NCBI RefSeq assembly: GCF_032854445.1
Contig: NC_088307.1
Location: 28,060,547 to 28,124,546, forward strand
Direction: 5' to 3'
DNA length: 64,000 bases
From: Liolophura sinensis
Lineage: Eukaryota > Mollusca > Polyplacophora > Chitonida > Chitonidae
Shown: one piece after another, positions 7,758 to 35,100 of the stretch
How positions within the stretch are numbered: position 1 is the first letter of the stretch
Layout: each line of letters starts with the position of its first letter
Notes under the pieces: model-generated
Told to the model about the DNA's origin: nothing
Databases searched by the model: none
What the model saw: only the letters and a program-made list of their open reading frames with translations
Position numbers and translations under genes: made by a program

Positions 7758-8229
7758 AGTACCACAAGCCTGACAAGGAAAAGTTAAAGAATAAACACTT
7801 GTTTTATGGTTAATATACAACTCTTGGTTATCCTCTTAGAAAACAAAAAGAAGGTCCCAAAAGAAGGTCACTTCAAAGAGGTGATAAACGAGTAAACAAA
7901 ACGCAAATAATCCAGCCAGCTTCTGTAACGTTCTGAAAGCTTCTCAACTCGTTAAACATAACCTTGAGTATTGGCTGACCGACAATACTATTGACTTTCC
8001 GCTGTTATAGTTTGACCTGAAAGTGAGAACAGCGTCTACAGAGAAATGTCCAAGCTAATAATCAGTTATGTGTGAAAGTTTAATCTCCAATATCTCAATG
8101 TTTAAGAAGAGGTCACTGGACAGAGCATATAGACATAACATGGATTACACGCTAGAATAGATCGCAACGATTTACGATTTTAAACAAAACGCGCTTGCCG
8201 AGAAAACGTGAGACACTTTGATCGTTCCG
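7758..8229. other. no feature seen
   Basis: AT-rich, without a supported coding region. Confidence 0.4.
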
Positions 8230-8475
8230 GCGTCATTGACAGCTCGATAAAGCAAAAGAGACAGACTTCCAGTTGGAATAGTCACACGTAACCGGTGAAA
8301 TTAGTCTCTCGTCGATTTGCCTCAGTTACAGTTTTCTTCCAACTTGTCATGTATTAACAGCGTAATCTCTAACAATTTGTACAACCCTACCACAATGGTT
8401 TAAGCAGAATTAGATATACAAAAGTACATTGATGTTAATAGTAATTTATTAGACGCCACTGATCTAGCATTATGT
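8230..8475 (-). repeat. dispersed repeat, same family as 1134-1398, reverse copy
   Basis: Reversed, it contains CGTGTGACTATTCCAACTGG, the CACCGGTTACGTG block and AGTGGCGTCTAATAAATTAC, in the order of the 9635-9840 copy. Confidence 0.5.
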
Positions 8476-8699
8476 ACTATTTTTAAATAGTTGCTCTCCT
8501 TAAGTTAATTTTGTGCCAAGATTTTGCGCTGACTTTATTCGGAAAAGCAGTTTACCTCGAATGTTGACAGAATGAGTGGATAATAGGTACAAGACTGTTA
8601 AAAAAAAAAAATACATTCTTCCTCTGTGTCTTAAATTGTTTTCTTTCCTAATAAATTGCTGAAAAATATCACATGACGATGTAAGGTCAGGCGAAAGGG

Positions 8700-8966
8700 A
8701 CGAGGGTGGTGGCGTAGTGGGTTGAATTCCACTCTTTTATCTAGTGCTGCTTCACTGCATGAGACGACTAACCGAAGGCAAGTAAGCCGACCCGTTCGAG
8801 CCATTATACGGGCTAACCAGTCGTTGCACTATCCCTTTCATGCTGAACGCCAAGCGAGAGAATTACAACTTCCTCTTTTAAAGTTTTTGGTGTAACTCGA
8901 CCCAGGATTGATCCTGGATCTACGGCTCCCGAATCGGACGCTCTACCAACTGTGCTATCCGGGCCG
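8700..8966 (-). mobile_element. SINE, family B, partial copy
   Basis: Reversed, the head reads GGCCCGGATAGCACAGTTGG followed by TAGAGCG, as in a tRNA A-box region, then GATCCAGGATCAATCCTGGG where a B box would lie. The body matches the copy just downstream (GTTGAACGCCAAGCGAG-like and CGAAGGCAAGTAAG). The 3' tail is missing. Confidence 0.7.
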
Positions 8967-8975
8967 GTCTAGCGG

Positions 8976-9342
8976 ATTGAGTGAGTGCGTGAGTGCTTGG
9001 GGTTTAACGTCGTACTCAACAATTTTTCAGTCATATGACGACGAAGGAATCATTAGGGTGCATGTACGTGTAATGTGCCTCCTTGTTGCAGGACGGATTT
9101 CCACCGCTCTTTTATTTAGTGCTGCTTCACTGAGACGACTTACCGAAGGCAAATAAGTCGCCCCGCCCGAGCCATCATACTGATACGGGTCAACCAGTCG
9201 TTGCACTATCCCTTTCATGTTGAACGCCAAGCGAGGAAGTTACAACTTCCTCTTTTAAAGTCTTAGGGGTGACTCGATCAAGGATTGATCCTGGATCTAC
9301 CGGTCCCGAATCGCTCTACCAACGGTGCTATCCGGGCCGATC
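8976..9342 (-). mobile_element. SINE, family B, full-length copy
   Basis: On the + strand it opens with GAGTGAGTGCGTGAGTGCTT, then TTTAACGTCGTACTCAACAA and CATATGACGACGAAGGAATC, and ends with the reversed tRNA-like head near 9339. It stands head to tail with the partial copy at 8700. No open frame; it would depend on a LINE for movement. Confidence 0.75.
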
Positions 9343-9634
9343 TAGATGATTGAAGAAAACACTTCAATTTTTCCATCTCTTATTTAACGGTACACTGTTC
9401 CTGACACCCAATGTGAATACAGCAGATCAGACTTGTGATTCTTCAGTCGAAATTTCCATACGGCAGACTAGTGAGATATCCGGTAAGATAAAACTCAAAT
9501 TCAAATTTAGACCATCAAAGCGAAAAAAAAAAAGCAGTACGATAGATCTGGCACGTCTGACGACATCAAATCTTGACAAATATATTCGAAGACCTACAGC
9601 ATGATGCGTAAAGAAAGAGCAGGGATGACTGTGT
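9343..9634. other. no feature seen
   Basis: One 84-codon frame ends in a lysine-rich run caused by an A tract. No family resemblance. Confidence 0.4.
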
Positions 9635-9840
9635 GATATATTGTTGGCAAATGGTCACGTGTAAACCGGTGAAATGGGATGTCTTGTCAATTTACCTCAG
9701 AGTTTTATTCTAACTGTTCATGTAAATGCTTTAAAAAATGACAAATAGTACAATAGTACCTAGGCTTAAGCAAACTTAGTTTATTAGACACCACTGGGCT
9801 AGAGTTACTCAACCTGCTGTGCTGTCATCACATGAACACT
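9635..9840 (-). repeat. dispersed repeat, same family as 1134-1398, reverse copy
   Basis: The best preserved copy. Reversed, it reads TGATGACAGCACAGCAGG ... TACATGAACAGTTAGAATAA ... GAGGTAAATTGACAAGAC ... ACGTGACCATTTGCCAAC. The order matches 2415-2690. Confidence 0.6.
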
Positions 9841-10684
9841 GATTCAGTTCAATGGACTAGCCCTCCAGGATTTCCTAGTTCACCAACAGAATTCCAACAA
9901 AACATTCTTTGTGCTTTTTGACTGAACATCTTTGGTCAGGCTAAAGTAGCAGGCCCGGCTTCTTTACTGCGTATTCGGTCTTCTCTGTAATACATGAAAC
10001 GTTGAGTCTAAAACTCAACCGTAACCCGGGGAGGCCTACTTCCCTGGGCTGGCTGTGTATAAGCAAAAGTGGGATAGGTAGAGTAATGAATGAATGAGTG
10101 TCCCTGCACTATGATTTAGTTATGCAGCACAACGTATATTAGGTCTGTTTTTGTGCAAGGAAACAGCGTGATGATAATGTTTTAAACAGGCTACACCGGA
10201 GATTTTTGATGAAATATCCTTATTCGCAAAGCAATGAACACTTTTCTCTACCAAGAAATTAACCAAAATTATTGTCTCGTAGACATCAAGCTCGCACTTG
10301 TAGTATTTATAGTGCTGAAGTGATTCTAAAGTTTGAAAAAGTTACAGTGCGACCCGCTTTATAGATAGTAACTTTGGAACCTATTTTGAACGTTAACATG
10401 TATGCAGACTGAGCTGATGGTTTGTGGAAAGTAATTAATTGTGCTATTCTAAAATAATAGCAAAATATCGACTGGATTTGCGCATTTTTTATCCCAAATC
10501 TCCGCTATAGCTTCTTGAAAGAGACGATAAACCCCAAAGCAAAAAGCTATTCGTTCAAAACGGCCAATGTATAGACATCGTTTTTGGAGACAATGTACGT
10601 TTTTTTTTTCATATACATTCGTAATTTCAAATACATGTACATTGTGAGTCATATTGATTTGGTGTTCTATTTTTTATGATTTTC
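9841..10684. other. no gene; ends in a splice acceptor
   Basis: Nothing coding is visible. The last bases, TTTTTATGATTTTCAG, make a good polypyrimidine tract and acceptor for the exon that starts at 10685. Confidence 0.45.
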
Positions 10685-13600
10685 AGAATTTGACCATTCT
10701 CATTCGGCATTCGTGAAGATGGGTCACGTATGCCTACTGCTGGGTTGTGTTATTGTCTTATCTCTACCAGGCACCCATGCTCTATCTTCGTCGGAACAAA
10801 CACTTCAGAAAGTTTTTGGTAAGTCCGTGGAAAAGCCACCTGTGCAAGGTGGCCAATCAATTTCTTTTTCACCAATTTGATCATTAAATCACAGGAAATA
10901 ATATCAAACTTTAACTTTATTTAATCATACATTTGAAGAAGAAGAATTCTCGATTAAAAAGAAAATATTGAGCATCAACTTTACATGCACGCTGTCATTA
11001 CGCCTGTCCCTGATCCCTGATTTCGAATTTCAAATTGTGAACCATGTTGAAACACGAGATTCAAGATGATGGCGTATCACTAATAACACTGGACAAAAAG
11101 TATTCAGTTCTGTCAAAAACATTTTATATTTTAACAAAGTGTAAAATAGCAAGGCAGAAATTTATAGCGTATCAACAACCTGTAATGTCTGTGTGACAGT
11201 ATTACCCAATCAGTGTCCGCTCACAAGAGGCAAATCTTGGGAAACAATCTTGCACGAATTGTAACCTTAACGATAGCACTTAGTGTCATTCCTAGTTTAA
11301 CATGATATATAAGCTGTGAGATAAACTAACCGGATATAGTGCAGTTTAAGCACATACTCATGAGCCCATTTTAATCAGGTCACAAAACACGTAGTAGTTT
11401 GTCAGACAGTGTGGTAGTTACAAAAAATGAGGTTATCACTAAATGATAAATATGTCACTCCCTGGTCATGATCGATCATTTTACGGACAACGGCGTCTTT
11501 CCAGCTATGTTTACATTCAGACTCGATTGTTTACATTTGGATCAAAGGTTTGTGGACGTCCTTGAGTACAATGTAAGTTTGTGTCATTTGAAACGCTTTG
11601 TGTGGACGTTTCAAAAGGTAGTTAGATATAGGTACCAGATAGCCCTGGTAAATGTATGGGATCACGACCTATGCTATTCTGCTTACTAACATTCGATGTG
11701 ATAAGATTATTTTTCTTTTTTAAGACCAGAGCGGTAAGAGAACTCCTCTGAAAAATAAAGCTCAGGGAAGTTTCAAGGGATAATTCCCTCATGTCATTTC
11801 AAATATTTGCAATACCTCGGTATCTTCCACGCTAACATTTGAATAAATGTAAAATGGTCACGCGAACATTTGTCTAAATGTGAGTGGGCACGCGAACATT
11901 TGCCTAAATGTGAAATGTTCACGCGAATATTTGCCTAAATGTGAGTGGTTACGCGAACATCTGCCTAAATATGAAATGTTCACGCAAACATTTGCCTAAA
12001 TGTGAAATGGTCACGCGATCCTATGTAGTTTGTTTCAGTTTTTTGGAGCACTTTATTTGGCTGAGGTAACTTTTCAAGTCATGTCACCTGACACGTTGTT
12101 ATTTATTATATTATTGTCGCTTTGTTAGTTTGACTCACAGACATCTTTTCTGGGGTTTTTTCCTGGGGATGGGGTATGTATTTATTAAATTTTACAGAAA
12201 GTGTCACTTTTTGTCAAGCAAACATAATAACGTTACGAACATGTTTTTTTTTTTCAAAATGTTGCATCATTCATAATTCGGTTATAAAAGGTAACATGTT
12301 TCTTCATGCAATTTATTTCATAGCCGGGCGAAAATTCGTAAATATGGAGACGGCTTATCTTTGTTATGCAAATGGTGTTTATGTATACTTAATCGGATCA
12401 ACCACAAATACGTGCAATACAAAGACAACAACTAATTACACATGCATATATACGTAAGCCACTGGCTCACCAATTAAACAAACGAAACGTTCAAATGGGA
12501 CGAGAGGTAAACCAACCTGCGCTAAAGTCCACAATCAGTGATTCGTATTTATCTACAAACTGGATGTGGACTTTGCGCTGACTAACCAGAGTGTAGGGAT
12601 AATGGATTAAAGTACATATTGGGACATTTACGTAAAATCTCAAAGCTCGATAATTGTAGGAGGCTAGCACGCCAGCGCAGCACAGTGACCCAGGAGCCTC
12701 TCAACAAGGTGGTCGACGTGGAGTTCAAGTCTAGCTCATGGTGGCCTCCTCTCCTGCCGAACGTGGGAAAGCCTACCAGCAACTTACGGATGGTTGTGAT
12801 CCCCACCCCCCACCGATCTGCCCGGTTTTCTCCCATGTCTTATGTACGGTGTAAAACACCAACCAAATAAATTTATTTACTTATTTATTTGATTGGAGTT
12901 TTACGCCGTACTCAAGAATATTTCACTTATACGACAGCGGCCAGCATTATGGAGGGTGGAAACCGGGCAAAGCCCGGGGCAAACCCACGACCATCTGCAG
13001 GTTGTAACCAGACTTTCTCACATACGGCCGGGGAGGAAGCCAGCATGAGCTGGATTTGAACTCACAGCGACCTGAGTTTTAGAGCTTTACTCCTTCCTGT
13101 TTTATTGCACTTTGGTCTTATATTGCATGTGTCATAAAATGTTTATCAGGTGAATAAATAAATCAGATCAAACCAATCCAGTTTAAGTAGGTTAATCCCA
13201 CTTGTCGCACTGTCCGGAAATTGACGATGGTCCATTCCTTGGTAGCTACGCACTCCTTGAACTATGCGTCATATCCAGTCGCTTGGATTCAGTGCATTAT
13301 TAACACCCAGTGACGTAGAGCTGCGCGCTCATGAATCCTCCACCGGCGGCAGTGCATCTTACATAATGATTTCAAGACTTCAAAAAGGGGTGCTTCACAA
13401 CCATAGCAGGCCTGTTAGGAACCGATACCACAAAACATTTCTGACATGACAGCATTTAAAACCTCGCCACAATGCTTAGTTTTTGGTACTGAAAGTTGAT
13501 ATGATACAAAACCTTTATATCTTGAATCAAAACACAAGCTCAAAATCGTATTTCAAATGACATAACACCGAAAGGGCTATGAGGGATTGGCCCCTGCACC

Positions 13601-14839
13601 TTGCCGCCACGATATGGCTGAAATATTGCCAATGTGGTGTTAAGTCATACTTGTTCATTCATTATAAATGTCTTGTTGTTTTTTGTTTTTTTTTTTGTTT
13701 TTTTTTTTTTTGGTTGGTGTTTTACGCCGTACTCAAGAATATTTCACTTATACGACAGCGGCCAGCATTATGGTGGGTGGAAAACGGGCACAGTCCGGGG
13801 AAAACCCACGACCATCCGCAGCTTGCTGGCAGACCTTCCCACGTACGGCCGGAGAGGAAGACAGCATGAGCTGGTCTTGAATTCACAGCGACCGCATTGG
13901 TGAGAGGCTTCTGGGTCACTACGCTGCGTTAGCGCGCTAACCGACTGAGCCACGGAGGCCCCAAAATGTCTTGTTGACGTAGGCCTAAAAATTCATACTT
14001 CCGGCGAATGCTACTGAATATCTCTGGATTAAGAAAAATATTTACTTAATACACCATAACTTCACGAGGTGGACATCACAAAACATAGATGTTTATTTGA
14101 AATTTTGGAATCACACAAAAAGTAATGAAATTTGTATTTCATATTTTTGTAAACTGATTAACTTAATATTGATGATTTTTCCACCATTTCAGCCGATCTG
14201 ATAATACGGTTGAAGAAATGGATTCATGACAATGAAGATGAACTAAAAGAAGGTATGAGTGCGATCCGGAAACACTTGTCGTTGTGGGGAAAGGGCCTGG
14301 GTCCGCCACGTCAAAAATGGCAGCCGGAGAAAACCACCAACAACATCCGGCCCAAGCCAATCAGAAGGCCGAGTCCAACTAACAGACCACGTCCAACTAA
14401 CAGACCACGCCCACTTCCTAAGTTCCCGTCCAATCGGCCACAGATTCCACGCTGGAACCGGAAGTCGCCTCGCCTTATCAAGAGCCCGTATGATCCCGAA
14501 TATTTCCGAAAACACCGGCGGTTTGGTCGGTCAGCTTCGTCGTCTGAGACATTTCAACGCCATCAGCTCATCTCAGAGTGTCTAGATATTTTGTCACAGT
14601 TGTTCTCTCTCACGAAATCCGCTCGGCGGTCACCGGGGATATCTGATAAGCGCATGGACGACTTTTTAGAGGACAAAAAACGTGAATACGACCACATGAC
14701 GACCGAAGAGTTAAAATTTCTGCTCAAACAGCTCCACGAAACGCAGCAGAAGGCCGAGGTGAGCAAAACAGGGGAGATAACTGTCAACGGCAAACCCGTG
14801 AACATTGACAACATCGACCTATGCTGTCCCTTCGGCTGA
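10685..14839 (+). CDS. unrecognised secreted Pro/Arg-rich precursor, whole gene span (248 aa, two coding exons)
   Basis: Joining 10719-10818 to 14193-14839 gives 747 coding bases and 248 residues. After the signal peptide (1-21) come an acidic/basic helix-like stretch (about 35-66), a Pro/Arg-rich block (about 71-143, with RPSPTNRPRPTNRPRPLP), and an Arg/Ser stretch with RR and KR pairs (178-179, 186-187, and KKR at 195-197). A helix rich in Glu and Lys (about 198-222) and the C-terminus DLCCPFG follow. There are three cysteines after the signal (163, 244, 245) and no membrane segment. The basic pairs and terminal Gly suggest a processed peptide precursor, while the PR-rich block recalls proline-rich antimicrobial peptides. 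Both are inference, and a matrix or secreted structural role is equally open. The intron holds only repeats. Confidence 0.7.
10719..10818 (+). CDS. secreted Pro/Arg-rich precursor, coding exon 1 (signal peptide)
   Basis: The ATG at 10719 has a good context (GAAG before it) and opens a classic signal peptide: residues 4-16 are a hydrophobic run (VCLLLGCVIVLSL) followed by PGTHA, a plausible cleavage after Ala21. The exon gives 33 codons plus one base and ends in TTTTTG before GTAAGT. It probably starts as a transcript exon at 10685 after a TTTTCAG acceptor, leaving 34 bases of 5' UTR. The single leftover G joins CC of the next exon to make Ala34, keeping the frame. The gene is not recognised as a member of a known family. 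Confidence 0.8.
10819..11832 (+). other. intron of the secreted-precursor gene, first part
   Basis: It starts with GTAAGTCC. No supported exon lies inside; a 73-codon frame at 11468-11689 has no resemblance or suitable splice signals. The whole intron runs 10819-14192. Confidence 0.55.
11833..12020 (+). repeat. minisatellite, about 30-bp unit, six copies
   Basis: Repeated ACGCGAACATTTGCCTAAAT followed alternately by GTGAGTGG or GTGAAATG. Copies differ at a few sites (ATATTTG, ACATCTG). It lies in the intron of the secreted-precursor gene. Confidence 0.85.
12021..12659. other. no feature seen (intron)
   Basis: A 93-codon frame (12176-12457) has no resemblance to a known protein. No repeat recognised. 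Confidence 0.4.
12660..12870 (+). mobile_element. SINE, family A, + copy of a tail-to-tail pair
   Basis: It contains CTAGCACGCCAGCGCAGC, GAGTTCAAGTC (B box) and GGTGTAAAACACCAACCAAA with an AAATAAATTTATT junction to the next copy, which points the other way. Its first bases (before the A box) are missing. Confidence 0.75.
12871..13075 (-). mobile_element. SINE, family A, - copy of a tail-to-tail pair
   Basis: It begins with TTATTTATTTGATTGGAGTT, then TTTTACGCCGTACTCAAGAA, and runs through the body to TGGATTTGAACTCACAGCGA, ending within the tRNA-like part. Together with 12660-12870 it forms an inverted pair able to fold in the pre-mRNA. Confidence 0.8.
13076..13665. other. no feature seen (intron)
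   Basis: Short frames only and no repeat recognised. Confidence 0.4.
13679..13963 (-). mobile_element. SINE, family A, full length with 13-bp target duplication
   Basis: Flanked by AAATGTCTTGTTG at 13666-13678 and again at 13964-13976. Reversed, it starts GGGGCCTCCGTGGCTCAGTC then GGTTAGCGCG (A box). It has GTGAATTCAAGACC at the B-box position, a body containing CCATAATGCTGGCCGC and GAGTACGGCGTAAAACACCA, and an A-rich tail. The flanking duplication shows LINE-type target-primed insertion. It lies in the intron of the secreted-precursor gene, antisense to it. Confidence 0.92.
14193..14839 (+). CDS. secreted Pro/Arg-rich precursor, coding exon 2 and stop
   Basis: The acceptor CCACCATTTCAG precedes 14193. 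The exon adds CC to the split Ala34 codon and continues open to a TGA at 14837-14839. It encodes residues 34-248: LIIRLKKWIHDNEDELKEG, then the Pro/Arg block with two TNRPRP units, then RKHRRFGRS, SARRSPG, DKR, DKKREY and the final NIDLCCPFG. Codons use all bases without repeat-driven bias except in the TNRPRP part. That block could be read in shifted frames too, but only this frame links to the signal peptide. Function unknown. Confidence 0.8.
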
Positions 14840-17750: not shown

Positions 17751-18021
17751 TTTTTTTTTTTTTTTTTTTTGATTGGCGTTTTACGCCGTACTCAAGAATA
17801 TTTCACTTATACGACGGCGGCCAGCATTATGGTGGGTGGAAACCGGGCAGAGCCCGGGGGAAACCCATGACCATCCGCAGGTTGCTGACAGACCTTCTCA
17901 CGTACGGCCGGAGAGGAAGCCAGCATGAGCTGGACTTGAACTCACAGCGACCGTATTGGCGAGAGACTCCTGGGTCATTACGCTGCGCTAGCGCTTTAAC
18001 CGACTGAGCCACGGAGGCCCC
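17751..18021 (-). mobile_element. SINE, family A, full length, inside satellite
   Basis: The 13-bp duplication AAGTCAGCATAGA lies at 17738-17750 and 18022-18034 and is itself satellite sequence. Reversed, it has GGGGCCTCCGTGGCTCAGTC, GGTTAAAGCGCTAGCGC, B box GAGTTCAAGTCC, the family body and a pure A tail of about 21. The clean tail and intact duplication mark it as one of the youngest copies here. Confidence 0.95.
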
Positions 18022-20686
18022 AAGTCAGCATAGAGAGCGGCTAAAATGGGGTGTTGCCCTGAATCTAAACAGCCAGAAGTTAGTATTGAGCGTGACTAAA
18101 ATGAGGTGTAAGTCAGCATAGAGAGCGGCTAAAACGGGGTGTTGTCCGGAATCTAAACAGCCAGACGTCAGTATTGAGAGCGGCGAAAATGAGGTGTAAG
18201 TCAGCACAGACAGCGGCTAAGGTGGGGTGTTGCCCTGAATCTAGACAGCCAGACGTCAGTATTGAGAGTGGCTAAAATGAGGCGTTGCCCTGAATCTAAA
18301 CAGCCAGACGTCAGTATTGAGAGCGGCGAAAATGAGGTGCAAGTCAGTACAGAGAGCGGCTAAGGTGCGGTATTGCCCTGAATCTAAACAGCCGTCAGTA
18401 CTGAGAGCGGCTAAAATGAGGTGTAAGTCAGCATAGAGAGTGGCTAAAATGGGGTGTTGCCCTGAATCTAAACAGCCAGACGTCAGTATTGAGAGTGGCT
18501 AAAATAAGATGTTGCCCTGAATCTAAACAAACAGACGTCAGTATTGAGAGTGGCTAAAATAAGATGTTGCCCTGAATCTAAACAAACAGACGTCAGTATT
18601 GAGAGTGGCTAAAATAAGATGTTGCCCTGAATCTAAACAAACAGACGTCAGTATTGAGAATGGCTAAAATGGGGTGTTGCCCTGAATCTAAACAGCCGTA
18701 AGTCAGTACTGAGAGTGGCTAAAATAAGGTGCCCTGAATCTAAACAGCCAGGCGTCAGTATTGAGAGTGGCTAAAAGAAGGTGTTGCCCTGAATCTAAAC
18801 AGCCAGACGTCAGTATTGAGAATGGATAAAATGAGGTGTTGTCCTGAATTTACACAGCCGTTGGTCAGTATAGAGAGAGGCTAAAATGAGGTGTAATTCA
18901 GTACAGAAAGCGGGTAAAATGAGGTGTTGTCCTGAATTTAGACAGCCGTTGGTCAGTATAGAGAGAGGCTAAAATGAGGTGTAATTCAGTACAGAAAGCG
19001 GCTAAAATGAGGTGATGTCCTGAATTTAGACAGCCGTTGGTCGGAATAGAGAGCGGCTAAAATGAGGTGTAATTCAGTACAGAAAGCGGCTAAAATGAGG
19101 TGTTGCACTGAATTTAGACAGCCGTTGGTCAGTATAGAGAGCAGCTAAAATGAGGTGTAATTCAGTACAGAAAGCGGCTAAAATGAGGTGTTGTCCTGAA
19201 TTTAGACAGCCGTTGGTCGGGATAGATAGCGGCTAAAATTAGGAGAAAATCAGTACAGAAAGCGGCTAAAATGAGGTGTTATCCTGAATTTACACAGCCG
19301 TTGGTCGGAATAGAGAGCGGCTGAGGTGTAATTCAGTACAGAAAGCGGCTAAAATGAGGTGTCCTGAATTTGGACAGCCGGTGGTCGGTATAGAGAGAGG
19401 CTAAAATGAAGTGTAATTCAGTACAGAAAGCGGGTAAAATGAGGTGTTGTCCTGAATTTGGACAGCCGTTGGTCGGTATAGAGAGCGGCTAAAATGAGGA
19501 GTAATTCAGTACAGAAAGCGGCTAAAATGAGGTGTTGACCTGAATTTACACAGCCGTTGGTCGGAATAGAGAGCGGCTAAAATGAGGTGTAATTCAGTCT
19601 AGAAAGCGGGTAAAATGAGGTGTTGTCCTGAATTTAGACAGCCGTTGGTAGGTATAGAGAGCGGCTAAAATGAGATGTAATTCAGTACAGAATGCGGCTA
19701 AAATGAGGTGCTGTCCTGAATTTAGACAGCCGTTGGTCGGAATAGAGAGCGGCTAAAATGAGGTGTAATTCAGCATAGAAAGCGACTATAATGAGGTGTT
19801 GTCCTGAATTTAGACAGCCGTTGGTCAGTATAGAGAGCAGCTAAAATGAGGTGTAATTCAGTACAGAAAGCGGCTAAAATGAGGTGTTGTCCTGAATTTA
19901 GACAGCCGTTGGTCGGTACAGAGAGCGGCTAAAATGAGGTGTAATTTAGTATAGAAAGCGGCTAAAATGAGGTGCTGTCCTGAATTTAGACAGCCGTTGG
20001 TCAGTATAGAGAGCGGCTAAAATGATGTGTAATTCAGTATAGAAAACCGCTAAAATGAGGTGTTGTCCTGCATTTAGACAACCGTTGGTAAGTATAGAGA
20101 GCGGCTAAAATGAGGTGTAATTCAGTATAGAAAACCGCTAAAATGAGGTGTTGTCCTGAATTTAGACAGCCGTTGGTCGGTATAGAGGGCGGCTAAAATG
20201 AGGTGTAATTCAGTACAGAAAGCGGCTAAAATGAGGTGTTGTCCTGAATTTAGACAGCCGTTGGTCGGTATAGAGAGCGGCTAAAATGAGGTGTAATTCA
20301 GTACAGAAAGCGACTAAACTGAGGTTTTGCCCTGAATCTAGACAACCAGTCACTATTGATATTGGCTAAAATGAGGTGTTGTCCGGAGTCTAGACAACCG
20401 TGAGTTGATGTAAAGAGCGGTTATTCTGATATTAGTGAGTAGTGGTCCAACGGTTCAGGACATACTTCCTCGATATGGTTCGTATACCGTCAAGGAGGCG
20501 TTAAAACCCAATGATACATTCTGAATACACGTGTGTATAGATTTTATTTGATAGCTGATGTACACTGTAGTCAAGAATGTTTCAAGTATCGGATGGGGGT
20601 CAATTTCAAGCCTGGGAAAAATCGGAGTGCAAGGCTTTCGTAAGGTACTACATTCCTCACATGTGAAGTACACGTGTATTGGTGGA

Positions 20687-22109: not shown

Positions 22110-22349
22110 GGGGCCTCCGTGGCTCAGTTGGTTAGCGCGCTAGCACAGAGTGATGACCCAGGAGTCTCTCACCAATGCGGTCGCTGTGAGTTCAAGTCCA
22201 GCTCATGCTGGCTTCCTCCACGGCCGTAAGTGGGAAGGTCTGCCAGCAACCTGCCGATGACCATGGATTTCCACCCAAAATAATGCTGGCCGCCCTCGTA
22301 TAAGTGAAATATTCTTGAGTACGTCGTAAAACACCAATTAAATAAATAA
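22110..22349 (+). mobile_element. SINE, family A, full length with 13-bp target duplication
   Basis: Flanked by TATTTCTTCAATT at 22097-22109 and 22350-22362. Head GGGGCCTCCGTGGCTCAGTT then GGTTAGCGCGCTAGC (A box), B box GAGTTCAAGTCC, body, and a tail of TTAAATAAATAA. It is the only full-length + strand copy with both boxes intact. Confidence 0.94.
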
Positions 22350-22379
22350 TATTTCTTCAATTAGTTTTTAAAGGAGTAT

Positions 22380-23681: not shown

Positions 23682-26113
23682 CTACCTCTGCAGCACGTGT
23701 AAAACCTCTTGATTAGTACTCTGTATGTCGTCTAACAGTTTCGTACCACTCGAAGGGTTACTCGTAGAGAAAGTCTTTAAGTTCTGACCGTATGACTGCA
23801 AGCGAGACAGCAGTTCACGAGTGTGGAATTTTGCATGAGGCGGCAAAGTGTCAATAAACTGGGAACAGAGGTTGTAAAACGATTGCACCTGTTCAGAAAG
23901 CAGCATGAAATTCGTGCTTGTCTTTGCACCTTTCGTGGCAAGAGATTCGATATAGGATTTCAGCTGATCTGAAGCCTCCACTATAACCTCTTTGGACAGT
24001 TCGTCGGTTTCAGACTCTGAGTTCGTGGCACCGGATATCACATGACTAGTACCGTTGCCAGCGCCATCTGTCGTCGAATTGGGCAGACTGGCCAGGGCAT
24101 TCTTTTGCAGAGGGATCACCGGTGTATAAATGGCTTGTTCGCGCCCACCAGGTTTGGCGTTTGTCGGAGACGCCTTGATTGGCGGTGACTCTGCCGACGT
24201 CGGCGAGTCCAACTTGCCTTCCTTGGAAAATCGAGACGGTTTCTTGCCTACGTCGGCACCAGGAGGCGCGGTAATGCTGGGAGAGGCTTCCGTGGTCGCG
24301 TGATTGCCAACAGACTTCAGTTTGAAGGGCAATTTGGAAATGTCTTCCTCTTTGTTCCCGTGTTGCTCCGCGCTGGACTGCTGGTTTTGGCCATCCAGCT
24401 CAGAAGCGTCTTGCTTGGGGGGCCAAGGCGGTCTCGGCGGTGGGAACTTCGTATCGTTCGCTTGTTGAACCTTGCTTGATTTTATCACAGACTCGCCTGC
24501 ATGTGACTCGGTATTATTGGTGTTGTTCTCCATGCCGCGTTGCGGCGGGGGCGGGAGGATGCCATGGCTGGTCTTCAGGTGCGGGGGAAACACCGACTTG
24601 CCACCGAGCCTCTCAGGTGTGTTGTCGCTGGAGGACAAGCTCTTGGTTTCCATGTTGGGCTCCTCTGAAGAAGTGGAAGGATGGCGGGGAGGAAAGTGCT
24701 TCAGGATGACTTGATGTTCCATCAACTGCACCTTCTCCACCTCCGTATTCTCTAGATGTGATCTACTCATCCTCGGGCTTGGCTTGGGTCTCGACTCGCT
24801 AACCGTGTCCGCCATGGCAGTCTTCTGATGACCCTCGTCCGCAGACTCGCCAATCCACTGTTTTGAGTTGTTCCCTTCTCCCCTAAAGGTAGACAGCTCT
24901 CCCTTCTGGCCGGTAGGGCTGGACTTGCTCTGGGTGAGGTCTGACTTGTGACGCTGTAACACGCCCGAATACGCCGGTTTGGCAATCTCCGACAAACCGT
25001 GGCTAGACTGAGACCTCGCAAAAGCTGACGGTTTTAGATTTGGCTCGAGAGTGATACCCTTTTCATCTCCTGCTCCTGTCCTGTCGGATTTGTCCTGCTC
25101 TGCCGCAGCAGCAGCAGCGGTTTCAGTCTGGGTATTGTGATCTGGAATATGTATAGGAGGGCAAGAGGAGATACTGGCAGTGTCCGTGCCAGAATCCACC
25201 TCCTCTGGGTGCTTATCGCGCCCTAAGTCATCCTCGTGACTCTCCGTCATGGATGCTAGATAAGCCCCGATGCGAGCACCCTTAGGGATGGTCCCGTATC
25301 TATTTATTGCTTGTTTCACATTGGTCATGTCCAGAGTGGCTAAGCGAGGACTGTCCAGAAGTCTTTCTGCGCCGTTCTCGGCGTCAGGGAAAGTCTTTGC
25401 TTTCTTTAAGCTCACAGATTTGTGTGGGAAAGGCAGCGGTACCCGGGGGTACTTCCCACCTATCCCCTGCTGCTTGTCAATACTTTCTTCACTGGTGCTC
25501 GTCTCTTTGTCCACCTTCACGCGGTCAGATTTGGACTCCTTACCAAGAAACCTAGCACTTGGTACAGGATGCATATGAAAGTTCCTTCTGCCGCTACTGC
25601 GCTCAGGGCAGGATTCGAATGTCCTGAGACCCGTGTCCGCCACAGATCCGCCCCTGTTTCTCTCTATACTCTCCATGCTGCTCCTTGAATACCCACTATC
25701 ATCTTGTGCCCTTATATCACCAGCGTAACGGTGGTGCTTTGGTGAACCAGACATCTTCCTGGAACCACCATGTAACCTATTTTTCAAGACTTGACCTAAT
25801 TCTGTCGTCAGCGAGTCCTGTTCGTGATCGTTGGCATCATGATGGTGATGATGATTTTCACTTTCATCCTCTGCCAACGGCCTGCTCTCTATTTTCACTT
25901 TTTGCATCTTAATTTTGCTCTTAAGCTCAGAGTCTATGTCCTGGTTTTCAGGGCATGAGCTATGCTGGTCCTTAAAGGATGTTGTTCTTCTAGGCGGCGT
26001 TGGTGCTTTCTTTTTAGAAGATTTGCGATTTAAAACATCTGCGGTTTGCCTTAGCACAGAATCAGTGTCTTCGTGAATTGGCAAGGCACGTCTAGAAGAT
26101 GGGGGAGTTGGAC
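23682..26113 (-). CDS. Abl: Abl exon 12 (last): proline-rich tail and F-actin-binding domain
   Basis: The acceptor TGTTGTAG precedes 26113. The exon opens with GT completing a Gly codon, then [18 protein letters not shown], and runs 2432 bases to the stop at 23682. Early [15 protein letters not shown] matches the conserved Abl PxxP site that binds SH3 adaptors. Middle: low-complexity Ser/Pro/Glu-rich, with a run of five His, [11 protein letters not shown] and ILPPPPQRG. The last 110 or so residues (from [18 protein letters not shown] to HVLQR) form the helical F-actin-binding domain. A single large last exon is typical of Abl genes. About 810 residues, somewhat longer than the vertebrate tail. 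Confidence 0.96.
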
Positions 26114-29100
26114 CTACAACACAGCAAAAGAAGAATGTAGAAAAAAAAAATGATCAACTGGGACAATTTCATCATATTACACCTGTGATAATGCCTTAAA
26201 GAGGCCGTACCAGTGATTTTTAGCCAAACATTGATCAGCACAAATCATATTCAAATCGTTCTATTATTTTAGAATGCCGTAAGTAGTTCCCTTTGACAAA
26301 ACATCTCGTCAGTGCATGATTTACCAAGTCTGGAATAAATTTCCTAATATTGAAAAACTGGGTCACATTATAACTTGATCAAACCTTAGAATCATTTTAA
26401 CACAATAAATAGCACATGCACGTGTCTGAAATTTACTGAAAGCCAATAATTTAAGTTATCCGTGGTAAATACATGTACAGATATCTTGAAGTGATTAGTC
26501 AATATGGATTTTTTGGAACAAATCTGTGGTATAGTCTAATATTCTATAGTATTTTACAAAATTTCACAGAGCAATGAGAGTTGTCTCATGACTAATAGCT
26601 CTATTGAATAATGTTTATAAACTGAAATGCTACCACACTTGTACATGTACCGTAGTCATTTATACAAGTACCGTAGTCATTTATAAATGTATAATCCATC
26701 TACATAATCTTCAGCATGCTCCTGATAAAACATGTACATTACTAATATCATAGACTTTATTCACGACACTGTTAATTTTCCCTCAAGTATACAAGACAAC
26801 TGTATTATCTTATTCTGTAGCCTCAAAAAAAAAGGGTTCAAGGAAAGATTTCTTTTAAGCGGCAATAGATATTCTAAATTATGATCCGTGCATTATGGCA
26901 CAGAAATCAACTATATGTAGTTGTAAGTAAGGATACACAGAACTAATGTTAAGAATGATTAACAATAGTTACAAGATTTATTTGTTGAATGTCTGTTCAG
27001 TTGTCAGCGGACGAAACTTAAAGCCCAGCCCACACGGGCAACATTTGTTGTCTTGATCTAGACAACAGATCCTCGTTTGCGAGTAACCACAATAGGAATT
27101 CCCGAGTCTGGAACAGTGATCCATAACTTCAGCTTGTTTAATTTTGAGCAACACAAAATCCAGAAACTAATGAGCCTGGCACATGATTTTGCTCATCTGC
27201 AGGCAATCTGGATCTTGTGAGATCGTTGTCGCCTACATCAACCAATCAGGGTCTACGGAAATGTCATTTGAGTAAATACAAAATAGAAACTGTGACACAA
27301 TTTTTTCGGGATCACATGACCTTGAATGTATAATGTGACTGTCCTTCGCCGCTGTAATATTCAAAACTGGACAACAAATGTTGCTCATGTGCCAGCAACT
27401 GATATTCCGGATCATCTCACACGGTTCTGAAAATCCTATTTTCGACGACAAATGCGCTAGGTTTAAGGTGAAAATTAAGCCCACTTAGCAAATCGGGGAA
27501 GGGACACTATACGGTTGGTTACACTGAATGTCGAAGTTCTCACAGGCTTATCAGAGGGCAGAGAAGTCAAATACCCTCATTTATCAACCTTTTTGAACAA
27601 AAAAGAGCTACTTTCTGCACAATTTACACACCTTTCTAATTTGATTTAGGGTACAAAACTACATTGGTTGTGTGGGTCAACTTCAGGGCTAGACAAAACT
27701 ACATTGGTTGTGTGGGTCAACTTCAGGGCTAGACAAAACTACATTGGTTGTGTGGGTCAACTTCAGGGCTTGACAAAACTACATTGGTTGTGTGGGTTGA
27801 CTTCAGGGCTAGACAAAACTACATTGGTTGTGTGGGTCAACTTCAGGGCCAGACAAAACTACATTGGTTGTGTGGGTCAACTTAGGGCTAGACAAAACTA
27901 CATTGGTTGTGTGGGTCAACTTCAGGGCTAGACAAAACTACATTGGTTGTGTGGGTCGACTTCAGGGCTAGACAAAACTACATTGGTTGTGTGGGTCGAC
28001 TTCAGGGCTAGACAAAACTACATTGGTTGTGTGGGTCGACTTCAGGGCTAGACAAAACTACATTGGTTGTGTGGGTCGACTTCAGGGCTAGACAAAACTA
28101 CATTGGTTGTGTGGGTCGACTTCAGGGCTAGACAAAACTACATTGGTTGTGTGGGTCGACTTCAGGGCTAAACAGAACTACACTGGTTTTGTGGGTCAAC
28201 TTCAGGGCTAGACAAATAACACAACTGTATCAGACTACATACAACAATGCTCTTAGAATATGCTTGAATACAGATCTTGCAAACGCGCCAAAAGCTTGAA
28301 GAACAACAGTAAGCAAAATAAAAAAAACCAAGTCATGAGGTAGATGAAGCTGCTTGTCTTTGATTATTTCTTTTCTTTTCTCTGCTAATGCCTGGCACCT
28401 CTTCTAATCATATGTACTTCAATCAGTCATCAGATAATATAAATAATTGTGTAAAAAGCTGCGCATCACACCAAATGTACTCACCAGCACTACTCCTCCC
28501 ATCTCCGCTCACATCAGCACTTTCAAAGCTATGGCCTCGTCCCGTCTTTTTGGACGGTAGGTTTGGCGGACGACGCTTCTCACTTGATTTCTCAAGTTCC
28601 TTCTCCACCTCTGCAGAACAGAAACATCAGTATGTCATCAGGAAATAAGGGAGATTTCGGCCAAGAATTTAAAGTGCAGACCGAAGTAAATACCAGGCTT
28701 GGCGCATGGTGTTTCATGTAGCTGAAAAGCATCCCCCTATCATAAATATTTGAGAAATATACTTTTTTTAAATTACTACTCCATCATAGACACTTTAGCC
28801 CAATCATTTTCCCAGACAAAACAAATCAGCTGTACCCTGAATTAGGTCAGTCAACAGTTTCATAATACTTTGGTGGCAGAGAGAATTCACCCCATCAATG
28901 GTAACCCACTGACAAAATAATCTGTATAATTATCAACAAAAAAAAGAAAAGAAAAGAACAGCTTTTCACTACAATTACAAGTTAAGTTTTTATTATTCCT
29001 TACATTCCTTTTAATAGATAAATGTACATTCCTAAGACACAAACTAACCTTCACTGATGCTGGAGTTCTGGAACATGTTCTCTAACTGGTAATGGATTTC

Positions 29101-32100
29101 CTTGAACGTTGGCCTATCTTTGAGGTCCCACTGCCAGCCTTAAAAGCAAACAAGAGGAACTCGTCACACATAAACCATATGTTGGTGGTACATTTCAAGG
29201 GAGGTAATCATACAAACACGACCTCTCATTTCAAACTACGACAAATGTGCGTAAGATGTTCAACAATATAGTGTCAGTATTAAGATTTGCTGTTATTCAG
29301 AAAAAACAAGCAACGGACAGAGTTGAGACTAACTGTCCCTCACTAATGGTAAATTTGGGCCAAGAAATGTAAACAAGGCAATCTTTATTCCACAAATAAA
29401 TTACATGTGCTTCACTAATATTTTTTATTTATTTTTTTTATTAATAAAAGTTCTGGTTGCCCCCTGAGAGGGAGTCAGCTTTTCTGTTCACATTTTCTGT
29501 TCACATTTTAACTGCTACTGAATAATCTTGACTGTATCTTTTATTCAAATCATCAATAGTTCAAAATAGCTTACGGCAGCCTTCAGTCCATATTACAGCT
29601 TCCAGGTGTATGCACAAATTCTACAGAGTGTAAATGTGAGCCACCAGTCATCGAGTTACTCTTGATAGCATTTAATAACATGAATCTCCAGTGTTAGGCA
29701 ATTTAATACTTTAGCTGCAGTCATATTAACTTCAATTTATTTTACATCAAACTTATCTTGCTTCAAATGCACTCAAAACACATACTGAATTTACATTTGA
29801 TCAAATGACAAAACAGTGTACATTTAGATGCAACCATGTATGGTGCAGGAAACCTGGAAGTCCTTGTCACGCATTACAAAACTGGGTCGAAAATTACTCA
29901 GCCACATTGCAAGGTATTCATTCTGTCAGTTCATTTCACAGTTCTGGGAACTGATCCACACTCTGGAATGGACAGGTCCAACAGCTGTACCCACTCTGAG
30001 AAGACTGCCACTTACATCTCAGCATGAGGTTGTATACATTAGCCGGGCACCCCGCGGGCCTCTCCATTCGGTACCCTCTCTCTAACAGGTGATACACCTC
30101 CGTCAGGTCAACCCCTGGGTATGGGGACATCCCAAATGTGGCCAGCTCCCAGAGGAGGACACCAAATGCTGGAATACAAAAGGAAAACAACAATAAATCA
30201 TCACAAACCACTATAAAGATTCAACTAGAAAAGGTAAAAATGTACTAATATTCATGTTTTACAAAATTTTGAAAACCTAATTCTCAGACAATTTTTGCTG
30301 AAAGTCATGCCGTCAGGAATACATTCATAATGCATATATAATGCTGCCATAAAACAACATGGGGAAAATTACAAGGAAGTATATCCATTCAGCTTGGTTA
30401 ATATGGGAATAGATTTCATGAAATCCTGGGATTATAATACGACGACGGGCCAAGCTCTGCTGGTGAAGCCCGAACAGAATATTCCCATTACAACTGAACA
30501 GACAATAAACACTCTGCAGCAAAACAAATGAGCACACAACAGTCACTCTGTGGCATAGCCATTTTCCCATTCCAACTGAACAGACAATAAACACTCTGCA
30601 GCAAAACAAATGAGCAGACAACAGTCACTCTGTAGCAAAGCCATTTTCCCATTACAACTGAACAGGCAATAAACACTCTGCAGCAAAACAAATGAGCACA
30701 CAACAGTCACTCTGTGGCAAAGCCATTTTCCCATTACAACTGAACAGGCAATAAACACTCTGCAGCAAAACAAATGAGCACACAACAGTCACTCTGTGGC
30801 AAAGCCATTTTCCCATTACAACTGAACAGACAATAAACACTCTGCAGCAAAACAAATGAGCACACAACAGTCACTCTGTGGCAAAGCCATTTTCCCATTA
30901 CAACTGAACAGACAATAAACACTCTGCAGCAAAACAAATGAGCACACAACAGTCACTCTGTGGCAAAGCCATTTTCCCATTACAACTGAACAGACAATAA
31001 ACACTCTGCAGCAAAACAAATGAGCAGACAACAGTCACTCTGTAGCAAAGCCATTTTCCCATTACAACTGAACAGACAATAAGCACTCTGCAGCAAAACA
31101 AATGAGCACACAACAGTCACTCTGTGGCAAAGCGATTTTCCCATTACAACTGAACAGGCAATAAACACTCTGCAGCATAACAAATGAGCAGACAACAGTC
31201 ACTCTGTAGTAAAGCAATTTTCCCATTACAACTGAACAGGCAATAAACACTCTGCAGCAAAACAAATGAGCAGACAACAGTCATTCTGTGGCAAAGCCAT
31301 TTTCCCATTACAACTGAACAGACAATAAACACTCTGCAGCAAAACAAATGAGCAGACAACAGTCACTCTGTGGCAAAGCCATTTTCCCATTACAACTGAA
31401 CACACAATAAACACTCTGCAGCAAAACAATTGAGCACACAACAGTCACTCTGTGGCAAAGCCATTTTCCCATTACAACTGAACACACAATAACCACTCTT
31501 CAGCAAAACAAATGAGCAGACAACAGTCACTCTGTGGCAAAGCAATTTTCCCATTACAACTGAACAGACAATAAACACTCTGCAGCAAAACAAATGAGCA
31601 CACAACAGTCACTCTGTGGCAAAGCCATTTTCCCATTACAACTGAACAGGCAATAAACACTCTGCAGCATAACAAATGAGCAGACAACAGTCACTCTGTG
31701 GCAAAGCGATTTTCCCATTCCAACTGAACAGACAATAAACACTCTGCAGCATAACAAATGAGCACACAACAGTCACTCTGTGGCAAAGCCATTTTCCCAT
31801 TACAACTGAACACACAATAAACACTCTGCAGCAAAACAAATGAGCAGACAACAGTCACTCTGTAGCAAAGTAATTTTCCCATTACAACTGAACAGACAAC
31901 AGTCACTCTTAAGCAAAGCAATTTTCCCATCACAACTGAACAGACAATAATAACACTGCAGAAAAGCTGATGGCACAGGTGAGCATTTCTTAACTGGAAT
32001 GAATGATTATGGGTTAACACCACATCGGCAATATTTCAGCAACATCGTGATGACTGTTACCTAGAAATGGCAACCATGTCCTTCCATGACATACCTGTAC

Positions 32101-35100
32101 ACTTGCTCATGGGAGTTAGTGCCTCGGTCTGACCAGAGCTGGTATGATTACCTGGATTTATTTATTTAATTGTGTTGATGCCGTTCACACAGATGTTTTC
32201 ACTTACATGACAAAAAGGTTAGGTTTATGGGTGGAGGGAGCTGGAGTGCCCAAAGAAACCAACCACCCTTCTCCAGGTAAAGCGGCCAGAACAGGATTCG
32301 AACTAAAGAGCTCACTGATCTCTGTCACAACTGTCTTGAGTCGGATTAGCACACGTAGGTTAACCTAGTATCTCATCATAGCTGTACTGTGTCAGTGCGT
32401 CTTACCCCAGACATCCGATCTGGTGGAGAAGCGGTTGTAGGCAAGTCCTTCTGGTGCCGTCCACTTGATGGGGAACTTGGCCCCAGCATGCGCCGTGTAG
32501 GTGTCGTCCTTCATTAGTCGCGCCAGCCCGAAGTCTGCCACTTTCACCAGATGGTTCTCCCCCACCAGACAGTTCCGCGCAGCCAAATCTCTGCCATACA
32601 GAAAGGGTGCATTGGTTAACATTAGTTGACAGTTGCATTAAAACGATGCTTTCATGAAGCGAAAATAACTGATTCACTGCACTGATTGGTGTTCAACGGC
32701 ATCCCCAAAAATTTTTCAATTATTTGATATGTTTTCTGCATCTAGAGAGCCAGTGGTAAACCACTGCCCTTTAGCAAGTTACAGACAACCTTTCCCATGT
32801 ATCACTTCAAGGTATACACACCATACTGGTGAAAGACAAGTGGTATTCAATGGATGTTAGCCTGCCAAAACTGGTGATACAAGCACTGTCAACCACATTA
32901 CTTTTTTGTCACCATGGCCTCACAAAAACTGAGAGCAGGGGAAGTTAATAATTTACCAAAAAGGCACTACAAGCATCTCATGTGTCCTAGCATTTGGCAC
33001 AAACATCTGCCCACTTACCTGTGTATATACATCTTAGCCTCCAGGTAAGCCATGCCCGAGGCAATCTGTGTGGCCATGTACATGAGTACAGTTGGACCTA
33101 ACTCCTCTTTGTTACTCGTGCGCAAGAAATCCAGTAAATTCCCATGAGTCATAAACTCCGTTAAAATATAAAATGGAGGCTCTCTCGTACAAACACCTGT
33201 GACATTCATGAAGGACAGGTTAATTGACAGGGTGAGTTACAGCCAAAAAGAATAGTAGTTCAACCAGTTGCTTTGTAAAATGTAGCTAAGTAAAAATGAC
33301 TGGTAATGAGGTGCTTGATTCTAAAGGTTGCCGTTTCAAAACTCATAGTTGTCTCGCTAATTTTCAGTAGTAGAATTGGTGCTATTTCCAGAAAGATTAA
33401 ATCCTAAATATTGACAACACTGAAAAGATCTACTGCCCTCATAAATCATGGGAGAGTTCAGGGATACATACCTAACAATTGGACTAGATTGGGGTGCTTC
33501 ATCTCCTTCATTATAGCTGCCTCTTCTAAGAAGTCTTTCAATGCCATCGTGTCTTCCTGGAAAAAGAAAACAGGACACAAATACAACAATGTAGTATACT
33601 TACTCAGGCAAATTCCACAAAGCCATTTGTGACTTAAGTTAAAATTAAGTATGTTCACAATGCTTAGTTTTTGGTACTAAACCTATCAGTTTGGACTTAA
33701 TATAATAATATTTATAAAGTGGAAGTTTTGATTGTTAAAGCCAACAAATAAGGTTTAAGATCATATTTCAAATTCTGACTTAAGTCATACATGGCTTTGT
33801 GAAATTAGCTCCAGGCTATTTTTAGAAATGAGGTCTGAGAGCAAGAAACGCTACATCCCATTTGGGGTGAATGTGCCAGCCAAGGGGTCTGAGAGCAAGA
33901 AACGCTACATCCCATATGGGGTGAATGTGCCAGCCAAGGGGTCTGAGAGCAAGAAACGCTACATCCTATATGGGGTGAATGTCCCAGCCAAGGGGTCTGA
34001 GAGCAAGAAACGCTACATCCTATATGGGGTGAATGTGCCCGCCAAGGGGTCTGAGAGCAAGAAACGCTACATCCCATATGGGGTCAATGTGGCAGCTAAG
34101 GGGTCTGAAAGCAAGAAACGCTACATCCTATATGGGGTCAATGTGGCAGCCAAGGGGCCTGAGAGCAAGAAATGCTACATCCCATATGGGGTGAATGTGG
34201 TGGCTAAGGGGTCTGAGAGCAAGAAACGCGTCATCCCATATGGGGTGAATGTGGTGGCTAAGGGGTCTGGGAGCAAGAAACACTACATCCTTTATGGGGT
34301 GAATGTGGCGGATAAGGGTCAGAGAGCAAGAAATGCTACATCCCATATGGGGTGAACGTGGCAGCTAAGGGGTCTGAGAGCAAGAAACGCTACATTCCAT
34401 ATGAGGTGAATGTGGTGGCTAAGGGGTCTGAGAGCAAGAAACGCTACATCCCATTTGGGGGTGAATGTGGCAGCTAAGGGGTCTGAGAGCAAGAAACGCT
34501 ACATCACATATGGAGTGAATGTGGCAGCTAAGGGGTATGAGAGCAAGAAACGCTACATCACATATGGAGTGAATGTGGCAGCTAAGGGGTATGAGAGCAA
34601 GAAACGCTACATCACATATGGAGTGAATGTGGCAGCTAAGGGGTCTGAGAGCAAGAAACGCTACATCACATATGGAGTGAATGTGGCAGCTAAGGGGTCT
34701 GAGAGCAAGAAACGCTACATCACATATGGAGTGAATGTGGCAGCTAAGGGGTCTGAGAGCAAGAAACGCTACATCACATATGGAGTGAATGTGGCAGCTA
34801 AGGGGTCTGAGAGCAAGAAACGCTACATCACATATGGAGTGAATGTGGCAGCTAAGGGGTCTGAGAGCAAGAAACGCTACATCACATATGGAGTGAATGT
34901 GGCAGCTAAGGGGTCTGAGAGCAAGAAACGCTACATCACATATGGAGTGAACGTGGCAGATAACATGATTCTTCAACCTTGTCGCATGTTTGCAAGATGT
35001 TTTTTCAAGCATATTCTGAAGGCATTATTCTGTGTAGACAGATGATATTACACTTTTTGCGAAGCCCTGATATTGGCCCCTCCAATGAATGTAGTTTTGT

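What the first reader, a model, noticed from the sequence alone, without database searches (positions are those of the whole stretch)
10719..14839. Unrecognised secreted precursor with a Pro/Arg-rich block and a CCPFG end
Two exons join in phase into a 248-residue protein with a clear signal peptide, RPxP/TNRPRP repeats, several basic processing-type sites (RR 178-179, KR 186-187, KKR 195-197) and a C-terminal Gly after CCPF. A terminal Gly can serve as the amide donor in peptide hormones. Cutting after KKR would free a 51-residue peptide (198-248) with two adjacent cysteines. The PR-rich part also looks like cationic proline-rich antimicrobial peptides. I cannot match it to a named family. 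It is the best candidate here for something new.
Basis: partly seen in the sequence, partly recalled or inferred. Interest (0 to 1): 0.72.

Follow-up and report, generated by a model that had tools for sequence, protein, structure and literature searches.

The report
Orphan secreted Pro/Arg-rich chiton precursor
A chiton (an armoured marine mollusc) carries what is very probably a real gene for a secreted protein with a strongly positive proline/arginine-rich middle and an acidic end; it matched no family in the libraries searched, and whether it makes a hormone, an antimicrobial peptide or something else is not yet known.

Summary
Exons 10719-10818 and 14193-14839 join in phase 1 into 248 residues with a strong signal peptide. 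Exon 1 is the only candidate signal-peptide exon in 8001-14162; 1 of 300 randomised copies has any. Exon 2 shows coding signal, though its codon score favours the frame only slightly. The genome is the chiton Liolophura sinensis, published as L. japonica.

"Secreted, unrecognised" stands: no Pfam or NCBIfam family, no paralogue found. The hormone case weakens: basic pairs match composition (10 against 8.7) and KKR195-197 lies inside a predicted helix. KHRR143, between the Pro/Arg-rich core and the acidic part, was missed. Pro/Arg motifs exceed composition, partly through one 18-base duplication.

Best reading: a precursor cut after KHRR143 or RFGR146, freeing a Pro/Arg-rich cationic peptide, probably for host defence, from an acidic C-terminal domain ending CCPFG. 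An amidated peptide hormone is the close rival. No expression, peptide or cross-species data were available. Interest is modest.

The parts
10687..10718 (+). probable 5' UTR part of the signal-peptide exon, behind an acceptor-like TTTTCAG ending at 10686
   Evidence: inference, no RNA evidence
10719..10818 (+). coding exon 1: signal peptide (residues 1-21, likely cut after THA) and start of the first helix
14193..14839 (+). coding exon 2, residues 34-248 and TGA stop; phase-1 splice
14195..14290 (+). rest of the N-terminal amphipathic helix region (residues 35-66; whole region 22-66 has net charge 0)
14291..14521 (+). Pro/Arg-rich cationic block, residues 67-143 (my borders; core 79-135): 23% Pro, 19% Arg, net charge +20, almost no predicted structure
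14374..14409 (+). two identical tandem copies of an 18-base unit, the source of the TNRPRP repeat
14510..14530 (+). KHRR (140-143) convertase-type site followed by FGR (144-146); RFGR is also an amidation-type signal
   Evidence: cleavage inferred
14531..14836 (+). acidic C-terminal part, residues 147-248 (pI 5.6): three predicted helices and three short strands; Cys163, Cys244, Cys245
14675..14683 (+).
14822..14836 (+). C-terminal CCPFG, directly before the stop

Best explanation
A chiton gene with no paralogue found encodes a secreted precursor of three modules: a neutral amphipathic N-terminal helix, a strongly cationic, apparently unstructured Pro/Arg-rich block, and an acidic, probably folded C-terminal part. 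After signal-peptide removal a furin/PC-type convertase cuts between block and acidic part (after KHRR143, or RFGR146). This frees a Pro/Arg-rich cationic peptide, which most likely acts in host defence as linear proline-rich antimicrobial peptides do, while the acidic part serves as a neutralising pro-piece. Supported by sequence: gene model, secretion signal, charge layout, motif enrichment, no family match in the libraries searched. Inferred: fold, cut, products and antimicrobial role.
For: Signal peptide with hydropathy 3.35, the only exon that meets the filter. PRP, RPRP or RPKP matches 5 (overlapping, at three places) against 0.22 expected; RP 7 against 2.1; 20,000 shuffles of the mature protein. 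Net charge 0 / +20 / -2 for 22-66 / 67-143 / 144-248 (summed over its rows); pI 6.9, 12.0 and 5.6 for 22-66, 67-143 and 147-248. KHRR143 is the only [RK]-X-[KR]-R match and lies between the core 79-135 and the helix that starts at 150. Mussel myticalins share signal peptide, cationic Pro/Arg region, convertase site, anionic C-terminal extension, a 5' UTR exon and a phase-1 intron (PMC5577615, passages). Exon-level matches to the convertase P-domain (7) and to Cu2-monooxygenase (25, of which 20 over the cut-off) exist in the genome; the latter family is wider than the amidating enzyme (recalled).
Against: One [RK]-X-[KR]-R site is what composition predicts (0.83 expected), and I drew the block border at it. 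A short low-confidence helix (135-140) runs up to the site. Two of the three motif places come from one 18-base duplication. Myticalins are multigene, lack cysteine (abstract in listing) and have the cationic peptide directly after the signal peptide; here one gene was found, with an extra helix, a differently placed intron and three cysteines. A 77-residue block is long for a linear Pro-rich peptide, and basic pairs at 91 and 123 could cut it up. No activity, expression or orthologue data. Pro/Arg-rich stretches also occur in matrix proteins and prohormone spacers (recalled).
Confidence: 0.38

Rival explanations
1. It is a peptide prohormone or neuropeptide precursor: convertases cut at basic sites, and the terminal Gly (CCPFG) and/or RFGR146 donate the amide, giving ...CCPF-amide or ...HRRF-amide products.
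For: Signal peptide, basic sites and no Pfam domain fit the entry criteria quoted in PMC3890597 (passages). [RK]FG[KR] is reached in 1.3% of composition shuffles. RR178 falls in a predicted loop. Phase-1 intron after the signal peptide. Oyster SLRFamide is described as an arginine-rich precursor with a C-terminal amidated peptide (PMC8398477, section 2.7 read).
Against: Basic pairs and Gly-basic signals are not enriched over composition (P 0.36 and 0.25). The RFGR figure is one of nine motif counts and is uncorrected. No repeated amidated unit in the sequence. KKR195 inside a predicted helix. No Pfam match.
Confidence: 0.32
2. It is a secreted structural or matrix protein that is not processed: the Pro/Arg block binds polyanions (mineral, mucin or chitin matrix) and Cys163, 244 and 245 cross-link chains.
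For: Predicted helical ends flank an unstructured basic linker; three cysteines, an odd number that would allow an intermolecular bond; chitons secrete shell, sclerite and tooth matrices (recalled).
Against: No resemblance to the one chiton tooth-matrix protein looked at, RTMP1, Gly/Ser-rich and 539 residues by description (PMC6351634, passages). No expression data.
Confidence: 0.18
3. It is a secreted cytokine- or growth-factor-like helical protein: the active part is 147-248, freed at RFGR146, and the rest is pro-region.
For: Predicted alone, 147-248 reaches pTM 0.65 without an alignment, and its helices are the same as in the model of the whole of exon 2.
Against: Both models are single-sequence predictions by one method; the five models of exon 2 range from mean pLDDT 68.5 to 43.7. 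Nothing seen ties the domain to a receptor or a signalling family.
Confidence: 0.09
4. The two exons do not belong together, or the frame is not a gene.
For: No RNA evidence; exon 1 has no codon-use signal and exon 2 only a small frame preference; the intron is 3.4 kb and holds repeats.
Against: Long open frame, periodicity, only compatible signal-peptide exon, strong splice sites, continuous helix face.
Confidence: 0.03

Closest known systems
Myticalins / modiocalins (mussel linear cationic antimicrobial peptides)
   Same: Signal peptide, Pro/Arg-rich cationic region, convertase-type site behind it, acidic C-terminal extension; phase-1 intron and probable 5' UTR exon (PMC5577615 passages)
   Different: One gene found rather than a multigene family; extra N-terminal helix; block 77 (my borders) rather than 23-42 residues; intron before rather than after the cationic part; three cysteines; no sequence comparison was run
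Proline-rich antimicrobial peptides
   Same: Pro and Arg dominate, with PRP motifs (definition from the start of the abstract of PMC11678341 in the listing)
   Different: Lies in the middle of a larger precursor; activity untested
Lophotrochozoan CLCCY proneuropeptides
   Same: Secreted precursor with adjacent cysteines; LCC shared with the family name
   Different: The literal motif CLCCY is absent (here DLCCPFG); family sequences were not seen, so this is a lead only (PMC3890597, PMC6425005, PMC8557429, PMC8398477, PMC5747525, passages)
CCWamide / agatoxin-like peptides
   Same: Cysteines and a possible amidated aromatic C-terminus
   Different: That family has eight conserved Cys in the mature peptide (PMC8557429 passage); here three in the whole mature protein
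HEXIM coiled coil
   Same: Weak sequence match of residues 149-228 to HEXIM1 (E 0.0072 with the C-terminal 111 residues, 0.024 with exon 2)
   Different: No match to Pfam; the genome has two HEXIM-model matches elsewhere; HEXIM is nuclear (recalled). The reversed-sequence control reached only E 0.3, so the match is better than the control yet weak

Membership tests
Proneuropeptide (criteria in PMC3890597, passages) | signal peptide | tested here: met
   (hydropathy and -3/-1 rule; no SignalP available)
Proneuropeptide (criteria in PMC3890597, passages) | at least one basic cleavage site, no non-neuropeptide Pfam domain | tested here: met
   basic pairs not enriched over composition
Proneuropeptide (criteria in PMC3890597, passages) | homology to a known prohormone, or neuronal expression, MS evidence, conservation, repetitive structure | tested here: inconclusive
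   no Pfam match; one 18-base duplication but no repeated amidated unit; expression, MS and conservation not testable
CLCCY proneuropeptides | CLCCY motif (taken from the family name) | tested here: not met
   protein reads DLCCPFG at its only adjacent cysteines
CCWamide / agatoxin-like | eight conserved cysteines and amidated C-terminal aromatic residue | tested here: not met
   three cysteines after the signal peptide
CCRFamide | C-terminal RF-amide with two cysteines (recalled meaning of the name) | tested here: not met
   precursor ends CCPFG; family sequences not seen
Myticalin-type antimicrobial precursors | signal peptide, cationic Pro/Arg region, convertase site, anionic C-terminal extension, in that order | tested here: met
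   against PMC5577615 passages, with an extra N-terminal helix and KHRR in place of KR
Myticalin-type antimicrobial precursors | cationic peptide directly after the signal peptide, intron behind it, no cysteine, multigene family | tested here: not met
   family features passages and an abstract
Myticalin-type antimicrobial precursors | sequence similarity of signal and anionic regions | not tested
   no mussel sequences were at hand
Proline-rich antimicrobial peptides | high Pro and Arg with PRP motifs | tested here: met
Proline-rich antimicrobial peptides | antibacterial activity | not testable with these tools
   needs a synthetic peptide assay
HEXIM | match to the Pfam HEXIM model | tested here: not met
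   0 Pfam families at E up to 10; HMMER filters drop most matches above about 0.1

The most novel reading that the evidence does not exclude
A new molluscan secreted-peptide family in which one precursor yields three unlike products: an amphipathic helix peptide, a Pro/Arg-rich cationic peptide ending in HRRF-amide, and an acidic domain whose CCPF-amide tail carries two adjacent cysteines, tethered by Cys163 as a disulfide-linked two-chain factor if cut at RR178 or KR186.
Probability: 0.1. Interest if true: 0.65.

Novelty: new member of a known kind. Interest (0 to 1): 0.36.

Why it matters
If the Pro/Arg block is released and active, chitons would have a linear proline-rich defence peptide in a precursor built unlike that of mussels. 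If the C-terminal product is an amidated signal, it would be another orphan prohormone, in a molluscan class that has been sampled little. Either claim becomes testable with one RNA-seq track and one peptidomics run; at present it is an orphan gene, not a demonstrated system.

Tried and rejected
Tried without result: Pfam and NCBIfam with the whole protein, 0 families at E up to 10; PHROGs with residues 147-248, 0 families at E up to 1; PDB sequence search, 2 weak rows with exon 2 and 5 with its last 111 residues, HEXIM1 coiled coil first (E 0.024 and 0.0072). I take HEXIM as a coiled-coil coincidence because Pfam gives no match and HEXIM-model matches lie elsewhere in the genome; the reversed-sequence control reached only 0.3, so this rejection is a judgement. 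Foldseek: best E 3.2 for the exon 2 model and 2.6 for the domain model, none at 0.001. VIA-align second look at 40 chains: best Z 6.5 (rmsd 3.7, 89 aligned) to a designed protein, in the range the tool calls common for unrelated helical models. No known fold was recognised; that does not show the fold is new.

Own genome: exon 2 finds itself and one stretch at E 8.8; the 51-residue end finds itself only. The pattern for CCPFG followed by TRR gave 4 places against 6 for the reversed control pattern; of the 3 other places one reads TGG, not a stop, and the other two show, by eye, no similar reading frame upstream. Withheld stretches of the genome read N. Viral and prokaryotic collections: 2 and 18 pattern hits, none a relative by tblastn, weak tests for an animal gene.

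Rejected: neuropeptide Y/F type (recalled: that family has an intron near its RxRF end, absent here; no call tested it); RTMP1 tooth matrix (Gly/Ser-rich by description). Text searches for motifs of this protein: 23 papers, all listed; CCPFG occurs in six papers on cone- or terebrid-snail toxins by title, not opened; 23 papers, all listed, none on this kind of precursor by title; 1 paper, a calcium channel. Most subscription journals are outside that library and supplements could not be opened. The bacterial promoter/terminator scan is not informative for an animal gene.
Full report
WHERE IT IS. The window lies in a genome of 609,464,459 bases in 632 contigs. The published Liolophura assembly has 632 scaffolds and 609,495,693 bases (31 kb more), and its scaffold_12 is 25,057,479 bases, the exact length of contig C4 here (PMC11068029, passages). 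The authors later renamed the animal L. sinensis (PMC12441733, whole text). So this is a chiton. The gene faces, tail to tail, an ABL-type tyrosine kinase gene on the other strand: SH3 and SH2 domains at 39203-39538, a kinase part at 29936-30220 and the F-actin-binding end at 23685-26153 (the name ABL is my reading of that domain set).

IS THE GENE REAL. Both exons and the phase-1 join are as described. Of 200 window shuffles 2 hold a stop-free run of 225 residues or more. The codon score of exon 2 is reached by 0.08%, and its 3-base periodicity by 0.04%, of 5000 sampled non-coding stretches. Limits of that test: the codon model comes from one exon of the neighbouring kinase gene; the score of the true frame (-0.012) is hardly above the +2 frame (-0.051); exon 2 has more G+C than the window, which may account for part of the lead; the periodicity (2.7) is below that of two stretches of the kinase exon (3.3 and 6.8). 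In 8001-14162 one exon alone meets a filter for signal-peptide exons that could splice to exon 2, and it is the proposed one. The first helix keeps its hydrophobic face across the splice. Exon 1 has no codon-use signal of its own, and no RNA was available.

WHAT THE PROTEIN LOOKS LIKE. After the signal peptide (cut expected after residue 21) come three regions: 22-66, net charge 0, amphipathic helix; 67-143, net charge +20, 23% Pro and 19% Arg, block pLDDT 51-62 and almost no predicted structure; and the rest, of which 147-248 has pI 5.6. The borders are mine. Predicted alone, 147-248 gives helices 150-177, 185-200 and 204-220 and strands 221-223, 229-231 and 234-236, pTM 0.65, mean pLDDT 75, with the last five residues under 50. 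The model of exon 2 has the same three helices. Both are single-sequence predictions.

DOES IT LOOK PROCESSED. By composition the mature protein should have 8.7 basic pairs and has 10; KR/RR 5 against 4.5; Gly followed by a basic residue 3 against 1.8; [RK]-X-[KR]-R 1 against 0.83 (20,000 shuffles). So the list of processing sites is not evidence by itself. Position says more. KHRR143 is the only [RK]-X-[KR]-R match, between the Pro/Arg core (79-135) and the helix that starts at 150; RFGR146 follows at once (P 0.013 by shuffling, one of nine motif counts, uncorrected). RR178 lies in a predicted loop, KR186 at a helix start, KKR195-197 inside a helix. The Pro/Arg motifs are well above composition (PRP-type 5 overlapping matches against 0.22; RP 7 against 2.1), although two of the three places come from one exact 18-base tandem duplication.

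RELATIVES. No Pfam or NCBIfam family, no paralogue found by two searches, and CCPFG-stop no commoner in the genome than a control pattern (4 against 6). I had no other animal genome to search, so whether the gene is chiton-specific is not known. The neuropeptide literature names several families with cysteine pairs; CLCCY is the nearest in letters, but the motif itself is absent and family sequences were not seen (passages). CCWamide has eight cysteines. Mussel myticalins have the nearest precursor plan (passages), with the differences listed in the membership table.

HOW IT MOST LIKELY WORKS. I commit to a secreted precursor cut between block and acidic part, freeing a cationic Pro/Arg-rich peptide for host defence, with the acidic part as pro-piece (0.38). 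An amidated peptide hormone is nearly as likely (0.32). Secretion and the charge layout are well supported by sequence; the fold, the cut, the products and the function are inferred. Exon-level matches for convertase P-domain (7) and copper monooxygenase (25, 20 over the cut-off) are present in the genome, which shows only that such enzymes exist.

VERDICT. Very probably a real secreted gene that no library searched recognises; a modest finding until expression, peptides and orthologues are seen.

Noticed in passing
window 23682-39538, minus strand: Exons of an ABL-type tyrosine kinase gene (SH3, SH2, kinase, F-actin-binding domains in 3 of the 5 minus-strand stretches given to Pfam), tail to tail with the reported gene; several long tandem arrays lie between these exons.
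   Followed up: partly
window 42692-43735, plus strand: A 347-residue stop-free Tc1/mariner-type transposase frame (HTH_Tnp_Tc3_2 and DDE_3), apparently intact.
   Followed up: partly
window 18022-63996: Many long tandem arrays, periods 34-261 bases (27 rows at score 300 or more, some overlapping; for example 18827-20344 period 88, 30482-31921 period 82), several of which give long spurious open frames.
   Followed up: no
G000 contig C99: Seven tandem COX1 matches about 15.5 kb apart, and an eighth on C632: probably the mitochondrial circle assembled as a concatemer.
   Followed up: no
window about 13710-13960, 17770-18020, 22110-22350: Copies of a short repeat with a tRNA-like flank (GTTTTACGCCGTACTCAAGAATATTTCACTTATACGAC...), probably a SINE, seen by eye; one lies in the intron of the reported gene.
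   Followed up: no
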